Below, piece after piece: positions 3,079 to 18,237 of a stretch of DNA of 35,605 bases. A model generated the notes under the pieces. That model was not told where the DNA came from and searched no databases. It saw only the letters and a program-made list of their open reading frames with translations. This DNA is from Chrysochromulina tobinii. Lineage: Eukaryota; Haptophyta; Prymnesiales; Chrysochromulinaceae. Position 1 is the stretch's first letter; every line of letters begins with the position of its first letter. The stretch covers positions 1 through 35,605 of the forward strand of contig JWZX01001991.1 in the NCBI GenBank assembly GCA_001275005.1. The letters are read 5' to 3'. Position numbers and translations under genes: made by a program.

Positions 3079-3211
3079 AGCGATCCGTCCCATCAAAATT
3101 GACGAACCCTGAGACTGGAGCAGCGATCCGTCCCATCAGAAGTGACGAACCCTTAGACTGGAGCAGCGATCCGTCCCATAAGAAGTGACGAACCCTTAGA
3201 GCTGAGACTGG
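3079..3211. repeat. 43-bp tandem repeat, three copies
   Basis: Units begin at 3079, 3122 and 3165 with AGCGATCCGTCCCAT and each carries TGACGAACCCT. Copies differ by a few substitutions, and the third is followed by a partial unit with an insertion. It is intergenic, just after the membrane protein stop codon at 3040. The period is not a multiple of three. Confidence 0.85.
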
Positions 3212-3540: not shown

Positions 3541-3605
3541 GTATTATCAGCTCTCAGCAAGCGGGCTCCCCGTGCGGGGCGATTTCCGCTCGAAGCTTCA
3601 TTTCG
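3541..3605 (-). ncRNA. Candidate SECIS element (form 2) in the peroxiredoxin 3' UTR
   Basis: Read on the minus strand, it starts about 73 nt after the peroxiredoxin stop codon. ATGA (3601-3598) is followed by a 12-nt stem strand made of AGCTT and CGAGCGG. Next come AAA (apical loop) and a mini-helix of CCCC closed over GCAC by GGGG. The returning strand has CCGCTTG, a 4-nt bulge CTGA, and GAGCT, followed directly by GATAA. CGAGCGG pairs with CCGCTTG and AGCTT with GAGCT, which places ATGA opposite TGAT, the tandem G.A pairs of the eukaryotic SECIS core. AAA plus an extra mini-helix is the form-2 layout. The 4-nt bulge is unusual. I folded this by hand only. Confidence 0.6.
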
Positions 3606-3674
3606 GCGAGCGCGAATGTGCGGAACGACCCGGATTTGGCCGCTAACGTTGTCTACTGAGCGTGGACCTCACGC

Positions 3675-4283
3675 TCACTTGAGACCCTTGATCGCGGCGA
3701 GCACGCCAGCGGCCGAGGAGTTGGCATTGGCGCCAGGGGCGTCACCGGAGGGGTCAGCGCCATCGTCCGGCGTGCCGCTGACGGCGACGTGCTTGATCAC
3801 GCCGTTGTCCACGTACAGCGCGAAGCGCTTCGAGCGCACTCCGCCCAGGGCCTTCATCGTGCCCGCCGCCTTCATCTCGAGGTCCAGCGCTTTCGTCAGG
3901 GCACCCGTCGTATCAGCGAAGAACGAGATGTTGGTGCCGGCAATCTTCTGGTCCTTGGCCCAAGCCTCCATGACGGCTGCATCGTTGACGCAGTAGACGA
4001 GGACCTCGTCGATGCCTGCATTACGGACGTCATCACGTGCCTTCTTGTAGCCAGGCACCTGGTCCTTGGATCAGGTTGGCGTGAAGGCGCCGGGCAACCC
4101 AACGATGATCACCTTCTTCATGGCGATCTTGTCGGCGAGGTTGAAGGGCGTGGGAGGCCACGAGGCCTTTTCCACTTCCACGGAAGGGAACTTGCTGCCG
4201 ACGGCAATCGCCATCGTGCGCGCATGGCGCTCCGCAAGCGGGCGACCCGCACCGACGACGCGACGCAGTGACATCATAATCAT
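3675..4283 (-). CDS. PRDX5: Type-II peroxiredoxin (PRDX5-like) selenoprotein with Sec at the peroxidatic position
   Basis: 202 aa when the internal TGA at 4073-4071 is read through (U71). The two parts are in the same frame on each side of it. Around it the protein reads LPGAFTPT, then TGA, then SKDQVPGY. This fits the peroxiredoxin signature PxxxTxxC with the TGA exactly at the peroxidatic Cys. Downstream come VNDAAVMEAWAKD, FFADTTGALTKALDL and RSKRFALYVDNGVIKHVAV, all in Prx5 order. Prx5 enzymes reduce H2O2, organic peroxides and peroxynitrite using thioredoxin or GSH. The C-terminal resolving Cys of human PRDX5 is absent. The only downstream Cys is in VYCVND, so a one-Sec mechanism is likely. 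The N-terminus (MIMMSLRRVVGAGRPLAERH) is basic and Ser/Arg-rich, as in a mitochondrial presequence. A SECIS candidate in the 3' UTR supports Sec insertion over a pseudogene. Confidence 0.85.
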
Positions 4284-4686: not shown

Positions 4687-7110
4687 TTACGCGCTGGTCT
4701 TGATCAGCACCGAGCGCAGCTTGCTCGTGCTCACGCCCTTTCTGCTCGCCGTCTTATGCTCCGATTTCGAGCCGTCGGCGATGGTCACGATGGCCCTCGA
4801 GAGGGCCGGCTGCTGCTTTGATGCCGCGTTGAGTGACGAGGACGGCTCACTCGAGAGCTTCTTTGGTGCCGAGGACGGCTCACTCGAGAGCTTCTTCGGT
4901 GCCGAGGACGGGTCCGGAGGCGCCTGCAGTGGCGGCGGGCTGCCGACTTTTCTGCGCGCGGCCAGCCGCACGCAGTCGAGCGGATTGAAGGGCTGGTTCT
5001 GGCTGTTGGCGCCGTCGATGGCTGCGCTCGCGCCCGCGGTGGGAGGCTCGCCGAGCGGGTTGCCGAGCTTCAGCTGGCTCACTCCTTCCTCCCAGGCCTT
5101 CTTAATGTCGAACGTACGTAGGCTGTCGCCCGTCTGCTTCGCCCAGAGCTCGAGAGAAAAGGCCCATGGCTTACCGGTACCTCCCATCGCGGCCTTCTGA
5201 AAGTCATCGCCCTGAATCCCCTCGAGGACCTCGTTGTAGTTGACACTTCCCGACCTGTCCTTGTCGAGCTTGTCGAAGAGAGCGTCCATTTGAGCCTCGG
5301 TCACTTGCGAGCTTGGCTCAAGTGACTTGAGCGCCTTGCGGAACTCGGCCGCATCGAGCTTGCCGGAGCCGTCCTCGTCCCACGTCTCGAAGACCTTCTT
5401 GAAGCCGTCTTTGGCCAAGCCTCCGAACCACTTTGCAAAGTTCTGCTCGCTCTCGCCGTGGTCCGGCTCGGGAGGTACCCTCGGTGTACTGGGCGGTAAG
5501 TGCATGCCCAGATTCTCCTTGAGCCGCTGCGCACAGCGTGCCACTGTGCGGAATACATGCTCTGCATGCTGCCACGCCTGGCGGGGATCGCCTCCGAAGG
5601 AGGTCTCCAGGTACGGCATGCGTCCGCCACAGGTGAGCATCCACTCGCGCACGTCCTCCTCGAACACTTGCCGCGGGCGCATCACGTCGACCTCTGCCTT
5701 GTTGCCCACGAGCACGAACGGGAAATTCTTTGGAGTTCGGCCCGTTAGCCGTGAGAACTCATGCAGCCAGCCACCGACCTCGCTCAGCGCGCGGAAGGAG
5801 CGCATCGACTTGACATCAAAGACGAGCAGCACGACATGAGCCTGCTTATAGAAGACCATCGAGAGGGCTTTATAGCGCGGGTTGCCCGCGGTATCAAGCA
5901 GTAGAAGCGGTAGCGGGTGGCTACCCGGGACAGTGACGCTCACCTCGTGGCACGTGGTGCCCATCGTCGGCCAATACGGCGCCTTGCTCTCGTATCCAGC
6001 ACGCTCCTCCAGCCCATCAGCGAGGTCGCGACTGAAACGAGGCGCGAGAGGTCCGCGAGACGTGCGCGTGCTGCGCGTGCTGCGCCCATGCATCGAGTCG
6101 CCGATGCCGGCGATGCCGCCGGCGCCGCCGGTAAGGCCGGCGAACATGCTTCCGCCGTGAAGGCTGATGCCGGCGACATCGCCGGCAAGGCTCCCGACGA
6201 TGCCGCCGAGCAGCCCGCCTGCCTGCGGTGGCCCTTTGCAGAAGGCCTCGATGAGAGTCGTCTTCCCCGCTCCGCTCGAGCCGAGCACCACGACTCGCTG
6301 GCGCTTGAGTGGTTCCCCATCGAGTCCAATCTCTCGCGGCAGGAAGGCCTGAAGCTCGCGCAGCATCGCCATCTCGTCCGCCTTCGCGTACGTACGAAGG
6401 AACGCGCGCACCCAGCACGAGCGGGGCATTCGCGAGAAGTGAGGCTGCACGATCGGAAGCTCGCTCACCGGCTTCGTCAAGTGCCATCGCAAGCGCCACG
6501 TCTCATCTTGGGCGTCGGGCGGCTTGCCGGGCGCGGTCGCGAGCGAGACGCGCAGAAAAAATGCTGGCCACTCGGTCTCCGGCCAGTCCAGCCACTTACA
6601 CAGCAGCGACGTCGAGTAGACCTCAAGGACCGTTGCACGGAACCAGCGGCCACGCCAGCACAAGGTACACAACTTGCCTGTGCGCGTCAGGATGCGCTTG
6701 ATCATGCCCGTCGAAAGCACGGCCTGCTCGGCGATGATGAGGTCCTCGAGGCTCACGAACGCGGGGTCCTTGAACACCGTGTCGCGCTCAAGCGGCTGCG
6801 GCGAGTAGTAGGCGACCAACTCGTTGCCAGAGTTGATGCTGTAGCGGTCGATGGCCATCATGTCGCGGAGCGGCACGCCGCGGAACTCGAGCTCGATCTC
6901 CTCAGCCTTTGGAACTACCTTGCTGCGAAGGTTACCCGTATCCTGCAGCAGGCGCAGCGCAATCTCAATCTTGACCTTCAGCACGAACACCATGTCGGAG
7001 TGGTCCACCGTCAGCGGCAGCAGCGGGCCCTCAAGCCCACGATCGAGCTTGACGCGCAGACGCACCGAGGTGTCAGCCACTGAGAAGGCGCTGCGCAGGC
7101 GTCGCTGCAT
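4687..7110 (-). CDS. Ubiquitin-like / Tudor-like / Ras-like GTPase / EF-hand multidomain protein
   Basis: 807 aa in one exon. Residues ~15-103 look like a ubiquitin fold, ending EIELEFRGVPLRDMMAIDRY then SGNELVAYYS. Residues ~140-200 contain CWRGRWFRATVLEV and CKWLDWPETEWP, resembling a Tudor or chromo-barrel module. A small-GTPase domain follows: P-loop GSSGAGKTT (~277), a long Gly-rich insertion where switch I should be, G3 DTAGNPRY (~405), G4 VGNKAEVD (~468), and ETS for G5. Two canonical EF-hand loops, DEDGSGKLDAAE (~577) and DKDRSGSVNYNE (~615), would bind Ca2+. The C-terminus is Ser/Pro/Lys-rich with PSSAPKKLSSE repeated. The G3 motif lacks the usual catalytic Gln (Asn instead), so GTP hydrolysis may be slow. 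This parallels Miro/Rab-EF-hand proteins in logic but not in order. The function is unknown. Confidence 0.8.
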   Translation of the reverse strand: MQRRLRSAFSVADTSVRLRVKLDRGLEGPLLPLTVDHSDMVFVLKVKIEIALRLLQDTGNLRSKVVPKAEEIELEFRGVPLRDMMAIDRYSINSGNELVAYYSPQPLERDTVFKDPAFVSLEDLIIAEQAVLSTGMIKRILTRTGKLCTLCWRGRWFRATVLEVYSTSLLCKWLDWPETEWPAFFLRVSLATAPGKPPDAQDETWRLRWHLTKPVSELPIVQPHFSRMPRSCWVRAFLRTYAKADEMAMLRELQAFLPREIGLDGEPLKRQRVVVLGSSGAGKTTLIEAFCKGPPQAGGLLGGIVGSLAGDVAGISLHGGSMFAGLTGGAGGIAGIGDSMHGRSTRSTRTSRGPLAPRFSRDLADGLEERAGYESKAPYWPTMGTTCHEVSVTVPGSHPLPLLLLDTAGNPRYKALSMVFYKQAHVVLLVFDVKSMRSFRALSEVGGWLHEFSRLTGRTPKNFPFVLVGNKAEVDVMRPRQVFEEDVREWMLTCGGRMPYLETSFGGDPRQAWQHAEHVFRTVARCAQRLKENLGMHLPPSTPRVPPEPDHGESEQNFAKWFGGLAKDGFKKVFETWDEDGSGKLDAAEFRKALKSLEPSSQVTEAQMDALFDKLDKDRSGSVNYNEVLEGIQGDDFQKAAMGGTGKPWAFSLELWAKQTGDSLRTFDIKKAWEEGVSQLKLGNPLGEPPTAGASAAIDGANSQNQPFNPLDCVRLAARRKVGSPPPLQAPPDPSSAPKKLSSEPSSAPKKLSSEPSSSLNAASKQQPALSRAIVTIADGSKSEHKTASRKGVSTSKLRSVLIKTSA

Positions 7111-7678: not shown

Positions 7679-8659
7679 TCACGGCGCGTCGGGCCATTTG
7701 ATCTCGCCGCACGCAAGGCGTGGGCCCGCGTTCCCCGTGATCTTCGAGACGAACCCGTTTCTCGGCGGCCCCGGCATGCTCGCCATCGAGTTATCTCCGT
7801 GTCCGAGATCATCCGGCTCCGCATGCACCAGGATGCTCCGGCCAATGACCGAGAACTTGCCGCTCAGCTGCACGAGGTTCGAGAAGAGCTTGCCTTTGGC
7901 TCGCCCGTCGCGATCGGCGATGATGTTGCCCAAGTCGCCCACGTGACGATTCTCGTCCTCCAGTCCGCCATGATCCTTCCCGTGAGGGTTATAGTGGCCC
8001 CCGGCACTCAGGCAGCCGTTCGAAAAGTCGGCTGTCTCGTGAATATGGAATCCGTGAGCGCCTTGGGCGAGCCCGACAATGTCGTACTCGATCAGGCAGC
8101 CCGAGCCCTGTGGCGTGAGCTTCACGGTGCCCTCCACCCGCGCAGCGATGGCGGGTGCAAACTGTGGCACGTTGTTCTTGGGCGCGTTCTTTAATTTGGC
8201 ATTGGGCGTCATCGACGGAGCGAGGGCGGCTTGTCCGCAGGGCTTGCCATTCGGGCTGATTTTGCAGATCGCGTACTTCGCGCCGAGCCCGCCGTCGCAC
8301 CGCAGGGCCTTTAGCACTGCGCCGTAGAGTGAGCAGAAGAAGTTGTCCATCGTGTTGTTCGACACGGTGCCCTTGACTTTCGTGGGTGACTCCACTCCTT
8401 TCCTGGGTGACAGCTCCTCCGCTGCCTTGATGAATGCCTTGACGCCACCAGGTAGTGAACAGGCCTTGACATCATCAGCTTGGGCATTAGGCGTCAGCGC
8501 CTGCGCCGCTTTGTCCCATCCCATGCTCTTTGTGGGCGTCTTTGTGGGAGACCTTGCTGCACGTGCCGAAGCGCGCTTTTCAGCATCGGCGCGCACCTGG
8601 GCCTGCACGCGGAGCGACTCCGCATCTGCGTCCGCGACTGCTGCTGGACCTGTGGCCAT
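7679..8659 (-). CDS. Cu/Zn superoxide dismutase with a ~155-residue N-terminal extension
   Basis: 326 aa, whereas a bare SOD1-type domain is ~150. The C-terminal half is a clear Cu/Zn SOD. Metal-ligand motifs are GFHIHE (~residue 202), HYNPHGKDHGG, HVGDLGN (the Zn-ligand Asp) and VHAEPDDLGHG. NAGPRLACGEI holds the substrate-guiding Arg and the disulfide Cys. The second disulfide Cys is in NGCLSAGGHYNPHG. It converts superoxide to O2 and H2O2. The N-terminal part is unusual. It is Ala-rich and carries TPTKTPTK-like and SPRK/SPTK motifs, as in CDK sites or AT-hook-like linkers. A Cys-containing block with FFCSLYGAVLKALRCDG and KYAICKISPNGKPCGQ follows. No signal peptide is visible, so a cytosolic or nuclear location is inferred. 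The next minus-strand gene downstream is the GTPase. Confidence 0.92.
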   Translation of the reverse strand: MATGPAAVADADAESLRVQAQVRADAEKRASARAARSPTKTPTKSMGWDKAAQALTPNAQADDVKACSLPGGVKAFIKAAEELSPRKGVESPTKVKGTVSNNTMDNFFCSLYGAVLKALRCDGGLGAKYAICKISPNGKPCGQAALAPSMTPNAKLKNAPKNNVPQFAPAIAARVEGTVKLTPQGSGCLIEYDIVGLAQGAHGFHIHETADFSNGCLSAGGHYNPHGKDHGGLEDENRHVGDLGNIIADRDGRAKGKLFSNLVQLSGKFSVIGRSILVHAEPDDLGHGDNSMASMPGPPRNGFVSKITGNAGPRLACGEIKWPDAP

Positions 8660-13677: not shown

Positions 13678-16600
13678 ATGAAAACATCGTGGGAATTACT
13701 CGTTGCCGCCGCCCTGCTGGGCGCGTGCGCCGAGAGCGCAAAGTCACTCGACCAGCACGTCGCCCCGACGCATGCACGCCGAGTGCTGTTCGCCGGTCTG
13801 CATTCGCCGCCTCGAGAGAATCTTGCACCACCGCAGCAACCGCTGGCGTCGCCGCCTTCGTCGCCGCCCTTGCCGCCTAAAAAGCCTCCCAGACCAGCGC
13901 AGCCTGGCTGGCACGTCGAGCGCCAGGGCCGCAGGCGTTACCCTCCCCCACGGGACTATGCGCAGGAGCTCCAGCCGGGCGGCCACCCGACGGCGTTCGC
14001 ACCACCCAACTGCTCGGCACGAGGGCGGGTGGGCTGCCTTGCGATGCCGAAGCCGGCCCGTGCGAAGCCTGCAGAAGGCGTTCGAGCTGCGCTCTTGCCA
14101 CCTACGTGCACCTTGTCCTCCGAGCCGGGGTGCCTGCGCCTTCCAAAGCCGTTGGCGAGGACGGGGCACGAGCTGCTTGATGGTGACGGACTTGTACTTC
14201 GATTCAGGAAGCTTCTGCCCAGCGGCAGCCCGTCCACGACATCGCTCGCGGTGGCGGACGTGGACGGCGACGGCGACCTCGACGTGCTGCTTGGGAACGA
14301 CGGCGATCCCAGCCTAGTGCTGCTCAACGCGGGCGACGGCACCTTCCCGATGAACATCACGCTGCCCGGCGGCGGCGCGACCACGCTTTCTATCGCGGCG
14401 GCGGACGTGGACGGCGACGGCGACCTCGACGTGCTGCTTGGGAACTGGGGCAGTTCCAGCGTAGTGCTGCTCAACGCGGGCGACGGCACCTTCCCGACGA
14501 GCATCGAGCTGCCACTGATTTCAAGCTTTTCTACTCTCACGGGCAACAAGTCGATCACGTACGCGATGACGTACGCGATCGCGGCAGCGGACGTGGACGG
14601 CGACGGCGACCTCGACGTGCTACTTGGAAACAATGGCAGTCCGAGCCGAGTGCTGCTCAACGCGGGCGACGGCACCTTCCCGACGAGCATCGACCTGCCC
14701 GGCGGCAGCGCGGTCACGCGCTCGATCGCGGCAGCGGACGTGGACGGCGACGGCGATCTCGACGTGCTGCTTGGGAACTGGGGCAGTTCCAGCCGCGTGC
14801 TGCTCAACGCGGGCGGCGGCACCTTCTTGACGAGCATCGAGCTGCCCGGCGGCGGCGCGAACACGCTTTCTATCGCGGCGGCGGACGTGGACGGCGACGG
14901 CGACCTCGACGTGCTGCTTGGGAACTGGGGCGATCCCAGCCGCGTGCTGCTCAACGCAGGCAACGGCACCTTCCCGACGAGCATCGCGCTGCCCGGCGGC
15001 AGCACGTACACGAGCGCGATCGCGGCGGCGGACGTGGACGGCGACGGCGACCTCGACGTGCTGCTTGGGAACTCTGGCAGCAGCCGAGTGTTGCTCAACG
15101 CGGGCGACGGCACCTTCCCGACGAGCATCGAGCTGCCCGGCGGCAGCGCGGGGGGCACGAAGTCGATCGCGGCGGCGGACGTGGACGGCGATGGCGACCT
15201 CGACGTGCTGCTAGTAAACGTTGGCAATCTCAGACTCCAAGTGCTCCTCAACGGGCTCAACGTGGGCGACGGCACCTTCCCGACGAGCATCGAGCTGCCC
15301 GGAGGCGGCGGCGGGGAAAAGACCTCGATCGCGGCTGCGGACGTGGACGGCGACGGCGACCTCGACGTGCTGCTTGGGAACTGGGGCAGTCCCAGCGTAA
15401 TGCTGCTCAACGCGGGCGATGGCACCTTCCCGACGAGCGTCGAGCTGCCCGGCGGCAGCGCGAACACGTTCTCGATCGCGGCGTCGGACGTGGATGGCGA
15501 CGGCGACCTCGACATGCTGCTTGCAAACGTTGGCAGTTCCAGCGTAATGCTGCTCAACGCGGGCGATGGCACCTTCCCGACGAGCATCGCGCTGCCCGGC
15601 GGCAGCGTGGGGGGCACGTACTCGATCGCGGCGGCAGACGTGGACGGCGACGGCGACCTCGACGTGCTGCTTGGTGGAAACGAGGGCCCCAGCCGAGTGT
15701 TGCTCAACGCGGGCGACGGCACCTTCCCGACGAGCATCGAGCTGCCCGGCGGCGGCGCGACCACGCTTTCTATCGCGGCGGCGGACGTGGACGGCGACGG
15801 CGACCTCGACGTGCTGCTTGGAAACTGGGGCAGTCCCAGCGTAATGCTGCTCAACGCGGGCGACGGCACCTTCCCGACGAGCATCGAGCTGCCCGGAGGC
15901 GGCGCGATCAGGTTCTCGATCGCGGCAGCGGACGTGGACGGCGACGGCGACCTCGACATGCTGCTTGGGAACTATGGCAGTCCCAGCGTAGTGCTGCTCA
16001 ACGTGGGCGACGGCACCTTCCCGACGAGCATCGAGCTGCCCGGCGGCAGCGCGAACACGTTCTCGATCGCGGCGGCGGACGTGGACGGCGACGGCGACCT
16101 CGACGTGCTGCTTGGGAACGATGACAGTTCCAGCGTAGTGCTGCTCAACGCGGGCGACGGCACCTTCCCGACGAGCGTCGAGCTGTCCGGCGGCAGCGCA
16201 AACACGCAGTCGATCGCGTTAGCGGACGTGGACGGCGACGGCGACCTGGACGTGCTGCTCGGGAACGAAGGCGGTCCCAGCCTTCTGCTGCCCTTTATCA
16301 GATGCTCTCAGCCTGGCACTGCACGCAGCCGCTTCGGCAACGGATGTGTTCGCTGCCCCGCTCCCTCCTCACGCCGCGACGACAGTTTTGATATCTGCTT
16401 CGAGTGTGAAGAGCACACGGAGCTCGACTACCGCGGCGAATGCTCCTCCTGCAAGCCCGGCAGCGATCGCTCCGTGGGAGCCGCGGAGTGCACCGCCTGC
16501 CCGCGCGGCAAGCGCCAAGGTAAGGCTGGCACATTCTGTGTCGACTGCTCCCCGGGCTCGTACGCTCCGTATGACGGCCTCTTTGGCCCCACGTGCTCGA

Positions 16601-18237
16601 CTGTTGATGCAGCCGCGAGTCTGGTTGCAGCAGCGCCTGCCGTAATACCGGTACAGATCGTGGCAGCCCTCCTCTCCATGGCTGCACTTCTCGTGGGACT
16701 TTGGTTGGCGGTTGCCTGCTGTCGCCGTCGCCGTCGGCGGCAGCTATGGCACAATCACATGTGCACCCAGCAAGATGAGGGTGTGAGCCTTCCGTTGGCC
16801 CAGTTGCGGGATCCTCTCAAGAGTTCGGGCGGAAGCTCCGACGCGGCAGTCCCAAGTGTGAGTTCCGACGAGTCGACGCACCTCGAGGTGGTGGACTTCT
16901 CGACGCTCACGATGGCCAGGCCGATCGGAAAGGGCGGCTTCGCAACCGTCTGGATGGCACGGTGGCAGGGCACGACCCTGGCTGTCAAAGTCCTTCACGT
17001 GGCGAATGAGAACTTTGACGGGTCGGCGCTCCAGGAGGTGGCCATCCTTCGTCGTCTGCGCCACCCGTGCATCTGCGCCCTCTTCGGCCACATGCGGTTT
17101 GAGCAGCAGCCCGCGCTCGTCCTCGAGTACATGGCCGGCGGCTCGCTCGCCGCGTACCTTTTCCAGCCTTCTCCGACGTCAAACGGGCATGTCCAGACCG
17201 GCCTGCACGACGCGTTCTCACGGGGGCTTTCGAGCCTGGCTTCCTTGTACCATCGTGTCACGAGTGGGGCGAGGTCCGTTTCCGCACGTGAAGCGGCGCC
17301 CGACGGCTACACACTGCAGGAGGCGCCGCGGTATCCGCGTCCAGCAACCCCTGATTTCGACAAGCACCTTGGGTTTGCTGTGCAGCTGGCAAGCGGGCTG
17401 AGCTTCCTCCACTCGAACGGCATCCTGCACTGCGACGTCAAGACGGATAATGCTCTGCTCGACGTGACCCTCACCGTGTGCAAGCTCGCCGACTTTGGCT
17501 TGGCGAGACTCTCCCTGAACCAGGTGAGGCGTACCGGGGGGGGCGCAGGCCTCCCCTGGGGGGGAGGGACACTGCGGTATCTGGCGCCTGAGATCGTGGA
17601 GGCGAACAATGCGAGCCTCGAACGTGGCGACTGTAGCAGCGTCAGCTCCAAACACCGCACGCTCGTCAGCTGCGCGGACCGCACGGATGTCTATGCCTTT
17701 GCACTGCTGCTCTATGAGCTCCTGCATGAGCGCCGCGCCTTTGAGGCGATGTCGGGGATAGATGCCTGCCTCAGCGCCATGCGGGGGCAGCGGCCGCCGA
17801 TCTCGCTACCCCCCAATCTCCATGGGCTCGCAGACCTTATGCAGGAGAGTTGGGCGCAGCGCCCAGAGGACCGCCCGATCATGAGCACCGTGCTCGAGAG
17901 GCTCGAAGCGTGCATGCAAGCCCATTGCGTGCGATCAGGCAAGCAGCCGCAATCTGTGATCTCAGAGGATCATGCTCATGGTCACGCTGAAGCATCCTCC
18001 TCTCGGCCCACTCATGTGGAAGCATCCTCTTCTCGGCCCACTGCTGAAGCATCCTCCTCTCGGCCCACTGCTGGAGCATCCTCCTCTCGGCCCACTGCTG
18101 AAGCATCCTCCTCTCGGCCCACTGCTGAAGCATCCTCCTCTCGGCCCACTGCTGCGCCTTCGAAGACCGACCAAATCGGAGAGCACATCCAGCGCAATCT
18201 CCAGTTTTGGCGCAACCTCAACATACACCAACCTTGA
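13678..18237 (+). CDS. FG-GAP/VCBS-repeat receptor-like protein kinase
   Basis: 1519 aa, single exon. It has a signal peptide (MKTSWELLVAAALLGACAES) and a Pro-rich juxta-propeller linker. Residues ~190-870 hold 14 FG-GAP/VCBS repeats of about 48 aa, each with the Ca2+-binding loop DVDGDGDLD and a VLLNAGDGTFP strand. Fourteen equals two seven-bladed propellers. A Cys-rich GCC2/GCC3-like module (e.g. CSSCKPGSDRSVGAAECTAC) follows, then a membrane span (~988-1010, IVAALLSMAALLVGLWLAVA) with a basic stop-transfer. The TKL-like kinase domain (~1076-1411) has GKGGFATVW, AVKVL, HCDVKTDN, DFGLA and APE. The Arg of HRD is Cys, so it is a non-RD kinase. A ~65-residue insert follows the hinge region. 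The tail is a 27-bp repeat (ASSSRPTAE). By analogy it is a surface receptor signalling through Ser/Thr phosphorylation. The ligand is unknown. Confidence 0.88.
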   Translation: MKTSWELLVAAALLGACAESAKSLDQHVAPTHARRVLFAGLHSPPRENLAPPQQPLASPPSSPPLPPKKPPRPAQPGWHVERQGRRRYPPPRDYAQELQPGGHPTAFAPPNCSARGRVGCLAMPKPARAKPAEGVRAALLPPTCTLSSEPGCLRLPKPLARTGHELLDGDGLVLRFRKLLPSGSPSTTSLAVADVDGDGDLDVLLGNDGDPSLVLLNAGDGTFPMNITLPGGGATTLSIAAADVDGDGDLDVLLGNWGSSSVVLLNAGDGTFPTSIELPLISSFSTLTGNKSITYAMTYAIAAADVDGDGDLDVLLGNNGSPSRVLLNAGDGTFPTSIDLPGGSAVTRSIAAADVDGDGDLDVLLGNWGSSSRVLLNAGGGTFLTSIELPGGGANTLSIAAADVDGDGDLDVLLGNWGDPSRVLLNAGNGTFPTSIALPGGSTYTSAIAAADVDGDGDLDVLLGNSGSSRVLLNAGDGTFPTSIELPGGSAGGTKSIAAADVDGDGDLDVLLVNVGNLRLQVLLNGLNVGDGTFPTSIELPGGGGGEKTSIAAADVDGDGDLDVLLGNWGSPSVMLLNAGDGTFPTSVELPGGSANTFSIAASDVDGDGDLDMLLANVGSSSVMLLNAGDGTFPTSIALPGGSVGGTYSIAAADVDGDGDLDVLLGGNEGPSRVLLNAGDGTFPTSIELPGGGATTLSIAAADVDGDGDLDVLLGNWGSPSVMLLNAGDGTFPTSIELPGGGAIRFSIAAADVDGDGDLDMLLGNYGSPSVVLLNVGDGTFPTSIELPGGSANTFSIAAADVDGDGDLDVLLGNDDSSSVVLLNAGDGTFPTSVELSGGSANTQSIALADVDGDGDLDVLLGNEGGPSLLLPFIRCSQPGTARSRFGNGCVRCPAPSSRRDDSFDICFECEEHTELDYRGECSSCKPGSDRSVGAAECTACPRGKRQGKAGTFCVDCSPGSYAPYDGLFGPTCSTVDAAASLVAAAPAVIPVQIVAALLSMAALLVGLWLAVACCRRRRRRQLWHNHMCTQQDEGVSLPLAQLRDPLKSSGGSSDAAVPSVSSDESTHLEVVDFSTLTMARPIGKGGFATVWMARWQGTTLAVKVLHVANENFDGSALQEVAILRRLRHPCICALFGHMRFEQQPALVLEYMAGGSLAAYLFQPSPTSNGHVQTGLHDAFSRGLSSLASLYHRVTSGARSVSAREAAPDGYTLQEAPRYPRPATPDFDKHLGFAVQLASGLSFLHSNGILHCDVKTDNALLDVTLTVCKLADFGLARLSLNQVRRTGGGAGLPWGGGTLRYLAPEIVEANNASLERGDCSSVSSKHRTLVSCADRTDVYAFALLLYELLHERRAFEAMSGIDACLSAMRGQRPPISLPPNLHGLADLMQESWAQRPEDRPIMSTVLERLEACMQAHCVRSGKQPQSVISEDHAHGHAEASSSRPTHVEASSSRPTAEASSSRPTAGASSSRPTAEASSSRPTAEASSSRPTAAPSKTDQIGEHIQRNLQFWRNLNIHQP
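14250..16285. repeat. About 144-bp coding repeat, 14 copies (FG-GAP blades)
   Basis: Each unit contains GTGGACGGCGACGGCGACCT, or a one- or two-base variant, and a GGCGACGGCACCTTCCCGAC stretch. Copies are nearly identical in nucleotides as well as protein, with small in-frame indels. The third-position conservation suggests recent duplication or gene conversion. Confidence 0.9.
17985..18162. repeat. 27-bp coding minisatellite at the kinase C-terminus
   Basis: Units of the form GAAGCATCCTCCTCTCGGCC plus CACTGCT recur about seven times (the first two are 30 bp), encoding ASSSRPTAE. The result is a Ser-rich disordered tail and possible phosphorylation array. Confidence 0.85.

What the first reader, a model, noticed from the sequence alone, without database searches (positions are those of the whole stretch)
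3675..4283. Type-II peroxiredoxin with selenocysteine replacing the peroxidatic cysteine
The sequence shows two PRDX5-like halves in one frame, separated by a single TGA exactly where PxxxTxxC requires the catalytic Cys (LPGAFTPT-TGA-SKDQVPGY). No GT/AG pair flanks it, and both sides are intact with no other lesion. Sec in place of Cys is known for several peroxiredoxin-fold proteins in algae. A Sec-PRDX5 lacking the C-terminal resolving Cys would be a fast one-Sec peroxidase, probably mitochondrial by its leader. Standard gene callers would truncate or split this gene.
Basis: partly seen in the sequence, partly recalled or inferred. Interest (0 to 1): 0.85.

Follow-up and report, generated by a model that had tools for sequence, protein, structure and literature searches.

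The report
Selenocysteine peroxiredoxin 5 in a haptophyte
An alga, probably a haptophyte, carries a gene for a likely peroxide-removing enzyme (peroxiredoxin 5 type) in which the catalytic cysteine codon is a UGA that is very likely read as selenocysteine, a known kind of algal selenoprotein that standard gene callers cut in half.

Summary
One in-frame UGA (codon 71, window 4073-4071) sits exactly where Prx5-type peroxiredoxins have the peroxidatic Cys, and both halves are intact. Selenocysteine is strongly supported. A SECIS-like hairpin (ATGA..AA..TGAT) lies in the 3' UTR at 3601-3546; the same fixed scan finds one behind 13 of 15 UGA-containing redoxin and GPx genes of this genome (this one included), 10 of 15 held-out Sec loci and 0 of 9 held-out non-Sec loci. 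The genome has tRNA-Sec (TCA), SepSecS, selenophosphate synthetase and a PSTK fragment; EFsec was not found and SBP2 was not sought. Four paralogues have UGA at the same codon. Of 120 listed relatives, 45 begin just after this column, 57 show Trp there (probably UGA read under another code), 12 show Cys; 80 of 80 bacterial loci kept have Cys. The genome is probably Chrysochromulina tobinii. Sec-containing PRX is already reported as one of the most widespread algal selenoproteins, so this is a new member of a known kind. What stands out is how thoroughly protein databases hide this clade.

The parts
3675..4283 (-). coding sequence of a Prx5-type (type II) peroxiredoxin, 202 residues with Sec at 71
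4071..4073 (-). in-frame UGA, codon 71, at the peroxidatic-Cys column (PxxxTxxU)
3546..3601 (-). SECIS-like hairpin in the 3' UTR: ATGA, 12-nt stem strand, unpaired AA, apical hairpin, 3' TGAT; 4-nt bulge in the 3' strand
   Evidence: stronger of the 2 scan hits in both strands of the window
3675..3677 (-). terminator, also UGA; a second in-frame UGA follows two codons on (3671-3669)
3990..3992 (-). codon of Cys98, the only cysteine of the ORF; candidate partner for the Sec
   Evidence: column is Cys in 108 of 120 relatives
3834..3836 (-). codon of Arg150, a conserved Arg taken to be the active-site Arg of peroxiredoxins (role recalled)
   Evidence: column is Arg in 118 of 120 relatives
4212..4283 (-). 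Arg-rich N-terminal leader, possibly a mitochondrial targeting peptide (by composition only)
   Evidence: not run through a predictor

Best explanation
This is a gene of a likely haptophyte alga (probably Chrysochromulina tobinii) for a Prx5-type peroxiredoxin in which a UGA stands at the peroxidatic-cysteine codon and is very likely decoded as selenocysteine under the direction of a predicted SECIS hairpin in the 3' UTR. Shown: the frame, the UGA at the active-site column, four same-genome paralogues with UGA at that codon, tRNA-Sec, SepSecS and selenophosphate synthetase genes in the genome, and a hairpin of the form that follows most UGA-containing genes examined in this genome. Inferred: a SECIS-binding protein and EFsec bring Sec-tRNA to UGA 71, while the UGA at codon 203 terminates. 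Inferred: the Sec selenolate, activated by Thr68 and Arg150, reduces H2O2 or organic hydroperoxides to water or alcohol; the selenenic acid is then resolved by an external thiol system (glutathione/glutaredoxin or thioredoxin), since the C-terminal resolving Cys is absent, or alternatively by Cys98.
For: UGA exactly at the Cp column and no other lesion. 120 listed of 630 homologues: 45 start after the column, 57 have W, 12 C, 2 D, 1 G, 3 a gap there; the Emiliania huxleyi model skips the site. Paralogue C1787, whose codon is TGA in DNA: of 120 listed of 2150 relatives, 31 truncated, 69 W, 17 C, 1 D, 1 R, 1 gap; its best full-length hits (P0245, P0084, P0249) are W. SECIS-like element in 13 of 15 Sec genes against 5 of 600 shuffled regions and 1 of 15 antisense regions; held out: 10 of 15 Sec, 0 of 9 non-Sec, 12 of 550 shuffles. 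Machinery. AlphaFold model (pLDDT 84.2) matches human Prx5 1oc3 and 2wfc. Purifying selection after UGA in paralogues C1835/C1515: dN 0.078, dS 0.35.
Against: No transcript, peptide or 75Se data. Rfam gives no SECIS match, though it gives none behind the GPx genes either. The window's hairpin has a 4-nt bulge and a 3' TGAT (shared with C1310) where GGAG is commonest (6 of the 13), and its folding energy is no better than shuffles (z -0.01). The scan criteria were shaped on the first 15 genes, and some held-out labels were changed after the scan (see Tried and rejected). EFsec was not found: the 16 matches of the SelB profile are other GTPases, six fragments by PDB search (IF2, LepA twice, BipA twice, eIF2-gamma), the others by eye only. 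The gene's own stop is UGA too.
Confidence: 0.93

Rival explanations
1. A recent nonsense mutation or sequencing error (TGC or TGT to TGA) in a Cys peroxiredoxin; the gene is dead or the base is wrong.
For: Cys is the residue in prokaryotic-type relatives: 80 of the 80 bacterial loci kept, 5 of 5 viral-contig loci.
Against: Four paralogues share the UGA; 45 of 120 listed relatives begin just after the same place; a SECIS-like element follows; coverage of the published C. tobin assembly is stated as 111x (PMC4580454, passages).
Confidence: 0.03
2. UGA is read through with another amino acid (for instance Trp), not Sec.
For: 57 of 120 listed relatives carry W here.
Against: Trp cannot do the peroxidatic chemistry (established knowledge); none of the 7 relatives that have a source other than jgi, lgn or ena has W; paralogue C1787 has TGA in DNA where its relatives show W; UGA ends the window gene itself; a tRNA-Sec with anticodon TCA is present.
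Confidence: 0.03
3. UGA truly terminates; a 127-residue C-terminal protein is made from the GTG at 4058 or nothing is.
For: The mechanical ORF list shows that piece.
Against: It would lack the N-terminal part of the fold and the PxxxTxxC loop; the N-terminal half is conserved with E. huxleyi and with full-length relatives.
Confidence: 0.01

Closest known systems
PRX selenoprotein family of algae (PMC7539508 and PMC2375036, passages seen)
   Same: Peroxiredoxin with Sec in unicellular algae; [quoted passage not shown] huxleyi
   Different: The passages seen do not state the Prx subtype, and the 2020 main text does not contain the word Chrysochromulina; figures and supplements were not seen, so identity with this Prx5 clade is inferred
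Human PRDX5 and plant type II peroxiredoxins (1oc3, 1tp9, 2pwj)
   Same: Fold, PxxxTxx(C/U) motif, conserved Arg
   Different: Sec instead of Cys; no C-terminal resolving Cys; its only Cys lies two residues after the second Cys position of PRDX5 (that position is recalled)
AhpC_a selenoprotein (TGGUT motif, PMC7539508, passages seen)
   Same: Peroxiredoxin-fold selenoprotein; a TGGUT gene is present in this genome at C2246
   Different: A different motif and subfamily from the window gene (PrxQ-like by eye)

Membership tests
Prx5 / type II peroxiredoxin | Redoxin domain over the curated cut-off | tested here: met
   95 bits against 26.6
Prx5 / type II peroxiredoxin | PxxxTxxC with Cys (or Sec) at the peroxidatic position | tested here: met
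   PGAFTPTU, UGA at the Cys column; that it is read as Sec is inferred
Prx5 / type II peroxiredoxin | Fold | tested here: met
   AlphaFold pLDDT 84.2; top PDB matches are Prx5-type chains incl. 1oc3, 2wfc, 1tp9
Atypical 2-Cys Prx5 (human type) | C-terminal resolving Cys | tested here: not met
   only Cys98 remains in the ORF
Eukaryotic selenoprotein | in-frame UGA aligned with Cys of homologues | tested here: met
Eukaryotic selenoprotein | SECIS element in the 3' UTR | tested here: met
   own scan with shuffle, antisense and held-out controls; Rfam gives no SECIS match; function untested
Eukaryotic selenoprotein | Sec machinery in the genome | tested here: inconclusive
   tRNA-Sec, SepSecS and SPS found; PSTK fragment below the cut-off; EFsec not found; SBP2 not sought
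Eukaryotic selenoprotein | Sec in the protein (75Se or mass spectrometry) | not testable with these tools
   -
Algal PRX selenoprotein family | sequence grouping with the published members | not tested
   published sequences not seen; text passages only

The most novel reading that the evidence does not exclude
In marine algae (haptophytes, diatoms and others) Sec is the rule and Cys the exception in a large Prx5 clade, yet public protein collections hold it almost only as wreckage: C-terminal halves that start just after UGA, proteins with a false Trp at the active site, frame-shifted Asp versions and models with a false intron. Read properly, selenium-dependent Prx5 would be one of the commonest peroxidases of ocean phytoplankton.
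Probability: 0.6. Interest if true: 0.5.

Novelty: new member of a known kind. Interest (0 to 1): 0.36.

Why it matters
If true it ties peroxide defence in an abundant group of algae to selenium supply, shows by example how selenoproteins vanish from automatic annotation, and gives a working description of SECIS-like elements in this alga (ATGA..AA or CC..xGAx, often GGAG) that Rfam's models miss and that flagged three held-out genes as selenoprotein genes before their UGA had been noticed.

Tried and rejected
Rfam: no SECIS match in the window gene region or in 11 loci; only five sub-threshold matches to unrelated families. A covariance model was planned from the hairpins, but MAFFT did not align them (A1, A2), so none was built. 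Viral contigs: 8 stretches and 0 relatives with the single protein, 14 stretches and 5 relatives with the alignment, all 5 Cys. EFsec: three profiles, no convincing hit (checks in 54, 56-58, 63, 64, 67, 74, 76). Pseudogene, Trp readthrough and true termination were considered and rejected as above.

Held-out labels: the script labelled 11 loci Sec and 13 Cys from the 'stops inside' column and counted 7 of 11 and 3 of 13 with a hairpin. L150's TGA is not at the MsrA active site, so I moved it to non-Sec; five SelU loci labelled Cys were moved to Sec because one search showed UGA just upstream of their domain match. This gives 10 of 15 and 0 of 9. L155 and L157 are probably two pieces of one gene, L141 and L142 probably copies of one another; L143 had only 381 nt to scan; the 13th MsrA match (C1201) had no locus and was not scanned.

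Full report
What is there. On the minus strand, 4283-3675, an ATG-initiated frame of 203 codons holds two stops only: TGA at codon 71 and the terminal TGA. The read-through protein is a Redoxin-family protein (95 bits). It aligns with solved Prx5-type chains; of the three alignments shown, the residue facing codon 71 is Cys in 4f82 and 3uma and Ser in 2wfc. Its predicted fold (pLDDT 84.2; alignment A3 of 19 rows, the query plus 18 of the 120 listed relatives picked by hand) matches human Prx5, Arenicola Prx5 and plant type II Prx. The mechanical ORF list shows only the 127-residue piece from a GTG at 4058.

Organism. The window is contig C930 of a 53.15 Mb, 2253-contig genome. Its SepSecS gene lies on contig C322, 25,805 bases long, and the best named homologue, P0124 [Chrysochromulina tobinii], lies on a contig of exactly that length. 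P0124 is a partial model of 430 residues, 90% identical over 92% of my query, so the match of letters is not perfect. The window's GC is 63.1%; the published C. tobin genome has 63.4% GC, 59 Mb and 3,472 contigs (PMC4580454, passages), so the genome held here is smaller. The identification is strong but inferred.

The column across relatives. Of the 120 listed (of 630) homologues, 45 begin after the column, 36 of them at the residue aligned with the Val of VPGYK (77 in P0002); 57 carry W, 12 C, 2 D, 1 G and 3 a gap. The E. huxleyi model P0047 is conserved before and after but lacks 18 residues around the site, which looks like a false intron; it also lacks a second stretch further on, so it is a poor model altogether. 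The 57 W proteins come only from jgi, lgn and ena, which I take to be mainly metagenome predictions; the 7 entries with another source (eukprot, merc, ncbi) are 4 C, 2 D and 1 gap (read off). For paralogue C1787, whose codon is TGA in DNA, 69 of 120 listed (of 2150) relatives show W, 31 are truncated, 17 C, 1 D, 1 R, 1 gap. W therefore most likely is UGA translated under another code; the DNA behind the W proteins was not seen. The D forms (PPDPS, PNDPQ) read like a frame shift across T-GA-T; that transcriptome peptide callers do this is recalled. Bacterial relatives: 80 of the 80 kept (of 550) have Cys.

Same-genome evidence. Six of 14 redoxin matches contain a TGA: the window, C1787, C300, C1835 and C1515 (Prx5-type, at the PxxxTxxU position) and C2246 (TGGUT). 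GPx: 9 of 13 matches with TGA. SelW/T-like Rdx: 6 of 6. MsrA: 5 of 13, 4 of them at the active site. SelU-like: 5 of 6 by inspection. That is 30 Sec-type loci in five Pfam families; C253 and C1490 may be one duplicated gene. Paralogues C1835 and C1515 show dN 0.078 against dS 0.35 after the UGA; the window gene against C1787 and C1835 is more diverged (dN 0.51 and 0.46, dS 0.9 and 1.1).

Machinery. tRNA-Sec at C2181 (70.7 bits, cut-off 47; ARAGORN anticodon tca); SepSecS (417.5 bits); selenophosphate synthetase as the later part of a long frame (292.8 bits); a PSTK fragment at C1352 (52 bits, below the curated cut-off). EFsec was not identified with PF21208, PF21131 (controls silent, so uninformative) or the SelB profile. 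SBP2 was not sought.

SECIS. Rfam gives no SECIS match here, nor behind the GPx genes. I scanned for ATGA, a stem of at least 8 pairs, unpaired AA or CC 9-15 nt on, and a 3' xGAx from a list of eight, energy -12 kcal/mol or better. After two exploratory scans had shown the shape, the fixed scan found one in the 330-1000 nt region of 13 of 15 Sec genes (the window's included), 5 of 600 shuffled regions and 1 of 15 antisense regions. C1835 and C1494 missed; looser hairpins lie there. It gave 0 hits in 76,398 nt of other loci, Cys paralogues included. In the whole window, both strands, it gave two hits, the stronger one 3601-3546 behind this gene. Because the criteria were shaped on these genes, I tested them on three families not used before: 10 of 15 Sec loci, 0 of 9 non-Sec loci, antisense 0 of 24, and 12 of 550 shuffles of the 11 loci first labelled Sec. 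The relabelling after one search is told under Tried and rejected. The window's own element is plausible but not perfect: minimum-energy folding leaves ATGA facing TGAT in an internal loop and AA in the loop, yet its energy equals that of shuffles.

Mechanism. Sec71 as the peroxidatic residue with Thr68 and Arg150 follows from the Prx family (catalytic roles recalled). The C-terminal resolving Cys of PRDX5 is absent; Cys98 is the only Cys, in a column that is Cys in 108 of 120 relatives, while the Cys after the conserved Arg (RCKR), found in 94 of 120 relatives, is Ser here. I favour an external thiol reductant. The UGA terminator lies 73 nt before the SECIS core; that UGA codons close to a SECIS are recoded poorly is recalled, not tested.

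Known or new. [quoted passage not shown] huxleyi; PMC2375036 (passages) lists Sec peroxiredoxins in Ostreococcus and Thalassiosira; PMC6254913 (passages) lists several Chrysochromulina species among algae whose growth selenium supports. The main text of the C. tobin genome paper does not contain words beginning with seleni, seleno or peroxiredoxin, and the search for Chrysochromulina with selenoprotein lists two papers, a review of selenium in microalgae and a tea-plant study. So: a new member of a known kind, with a well-supported lesson about hidden annotation.

Noticed in passing
G000, 30 loci in five Pfam families: Large selenoprotein set, not described in the papers found: 6 redoxin, 9 GPx, 6 Rdx, 4 MsrA and 5 SelU-like loci with UGA at the Sec site or inside the domain match (literature).
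   Followed up: partly
window 3669-3677 (-): The Sec gene ends with UGA and a second in-frame UGA two codons later, so the cell must tell UGAs apart in one mRNA; the four other Prx5 paralogues end in TAA or TAG.
   Followed up: no
L029 (G000:C157:7400-11239): Selenophosphate synthetase is the later part of a long frame (1168 aa open frame) and reads GCGAKVG, with Ala where SelD proteins usually have Cys or Sec (that position is recalled).
   Followed up: no
window 3079-3200: Tandem repeat, 43-nt unit, 2.8 copies, between the gene's 3' end and the neighbouring plus-strand frame.
   Followed up: no
window 7679-8659 (-): Cu/Zn superoxide dismutase frame (Sod_Cu, E 4.2e-43) a few kb away.
   Followed up: no
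window 13678-18237 (+): 1519-residue frame with FG-GAP repeats followed by a protein kinase domain, a receptor-kinase-like layout.
   Followed up: no
window 4687-7110 (-): Ras/Roc GTPase domain followed by an EF-hand pair in one frame.
   Followed up: no
P0029, P0091, P0321 (eukprot proteins, diatoms by the names shown): Asp at the active-site column within PPDPS or PNDPQ strings, probably frame-shifted readings of the UGA codon.
   Followed up: partly
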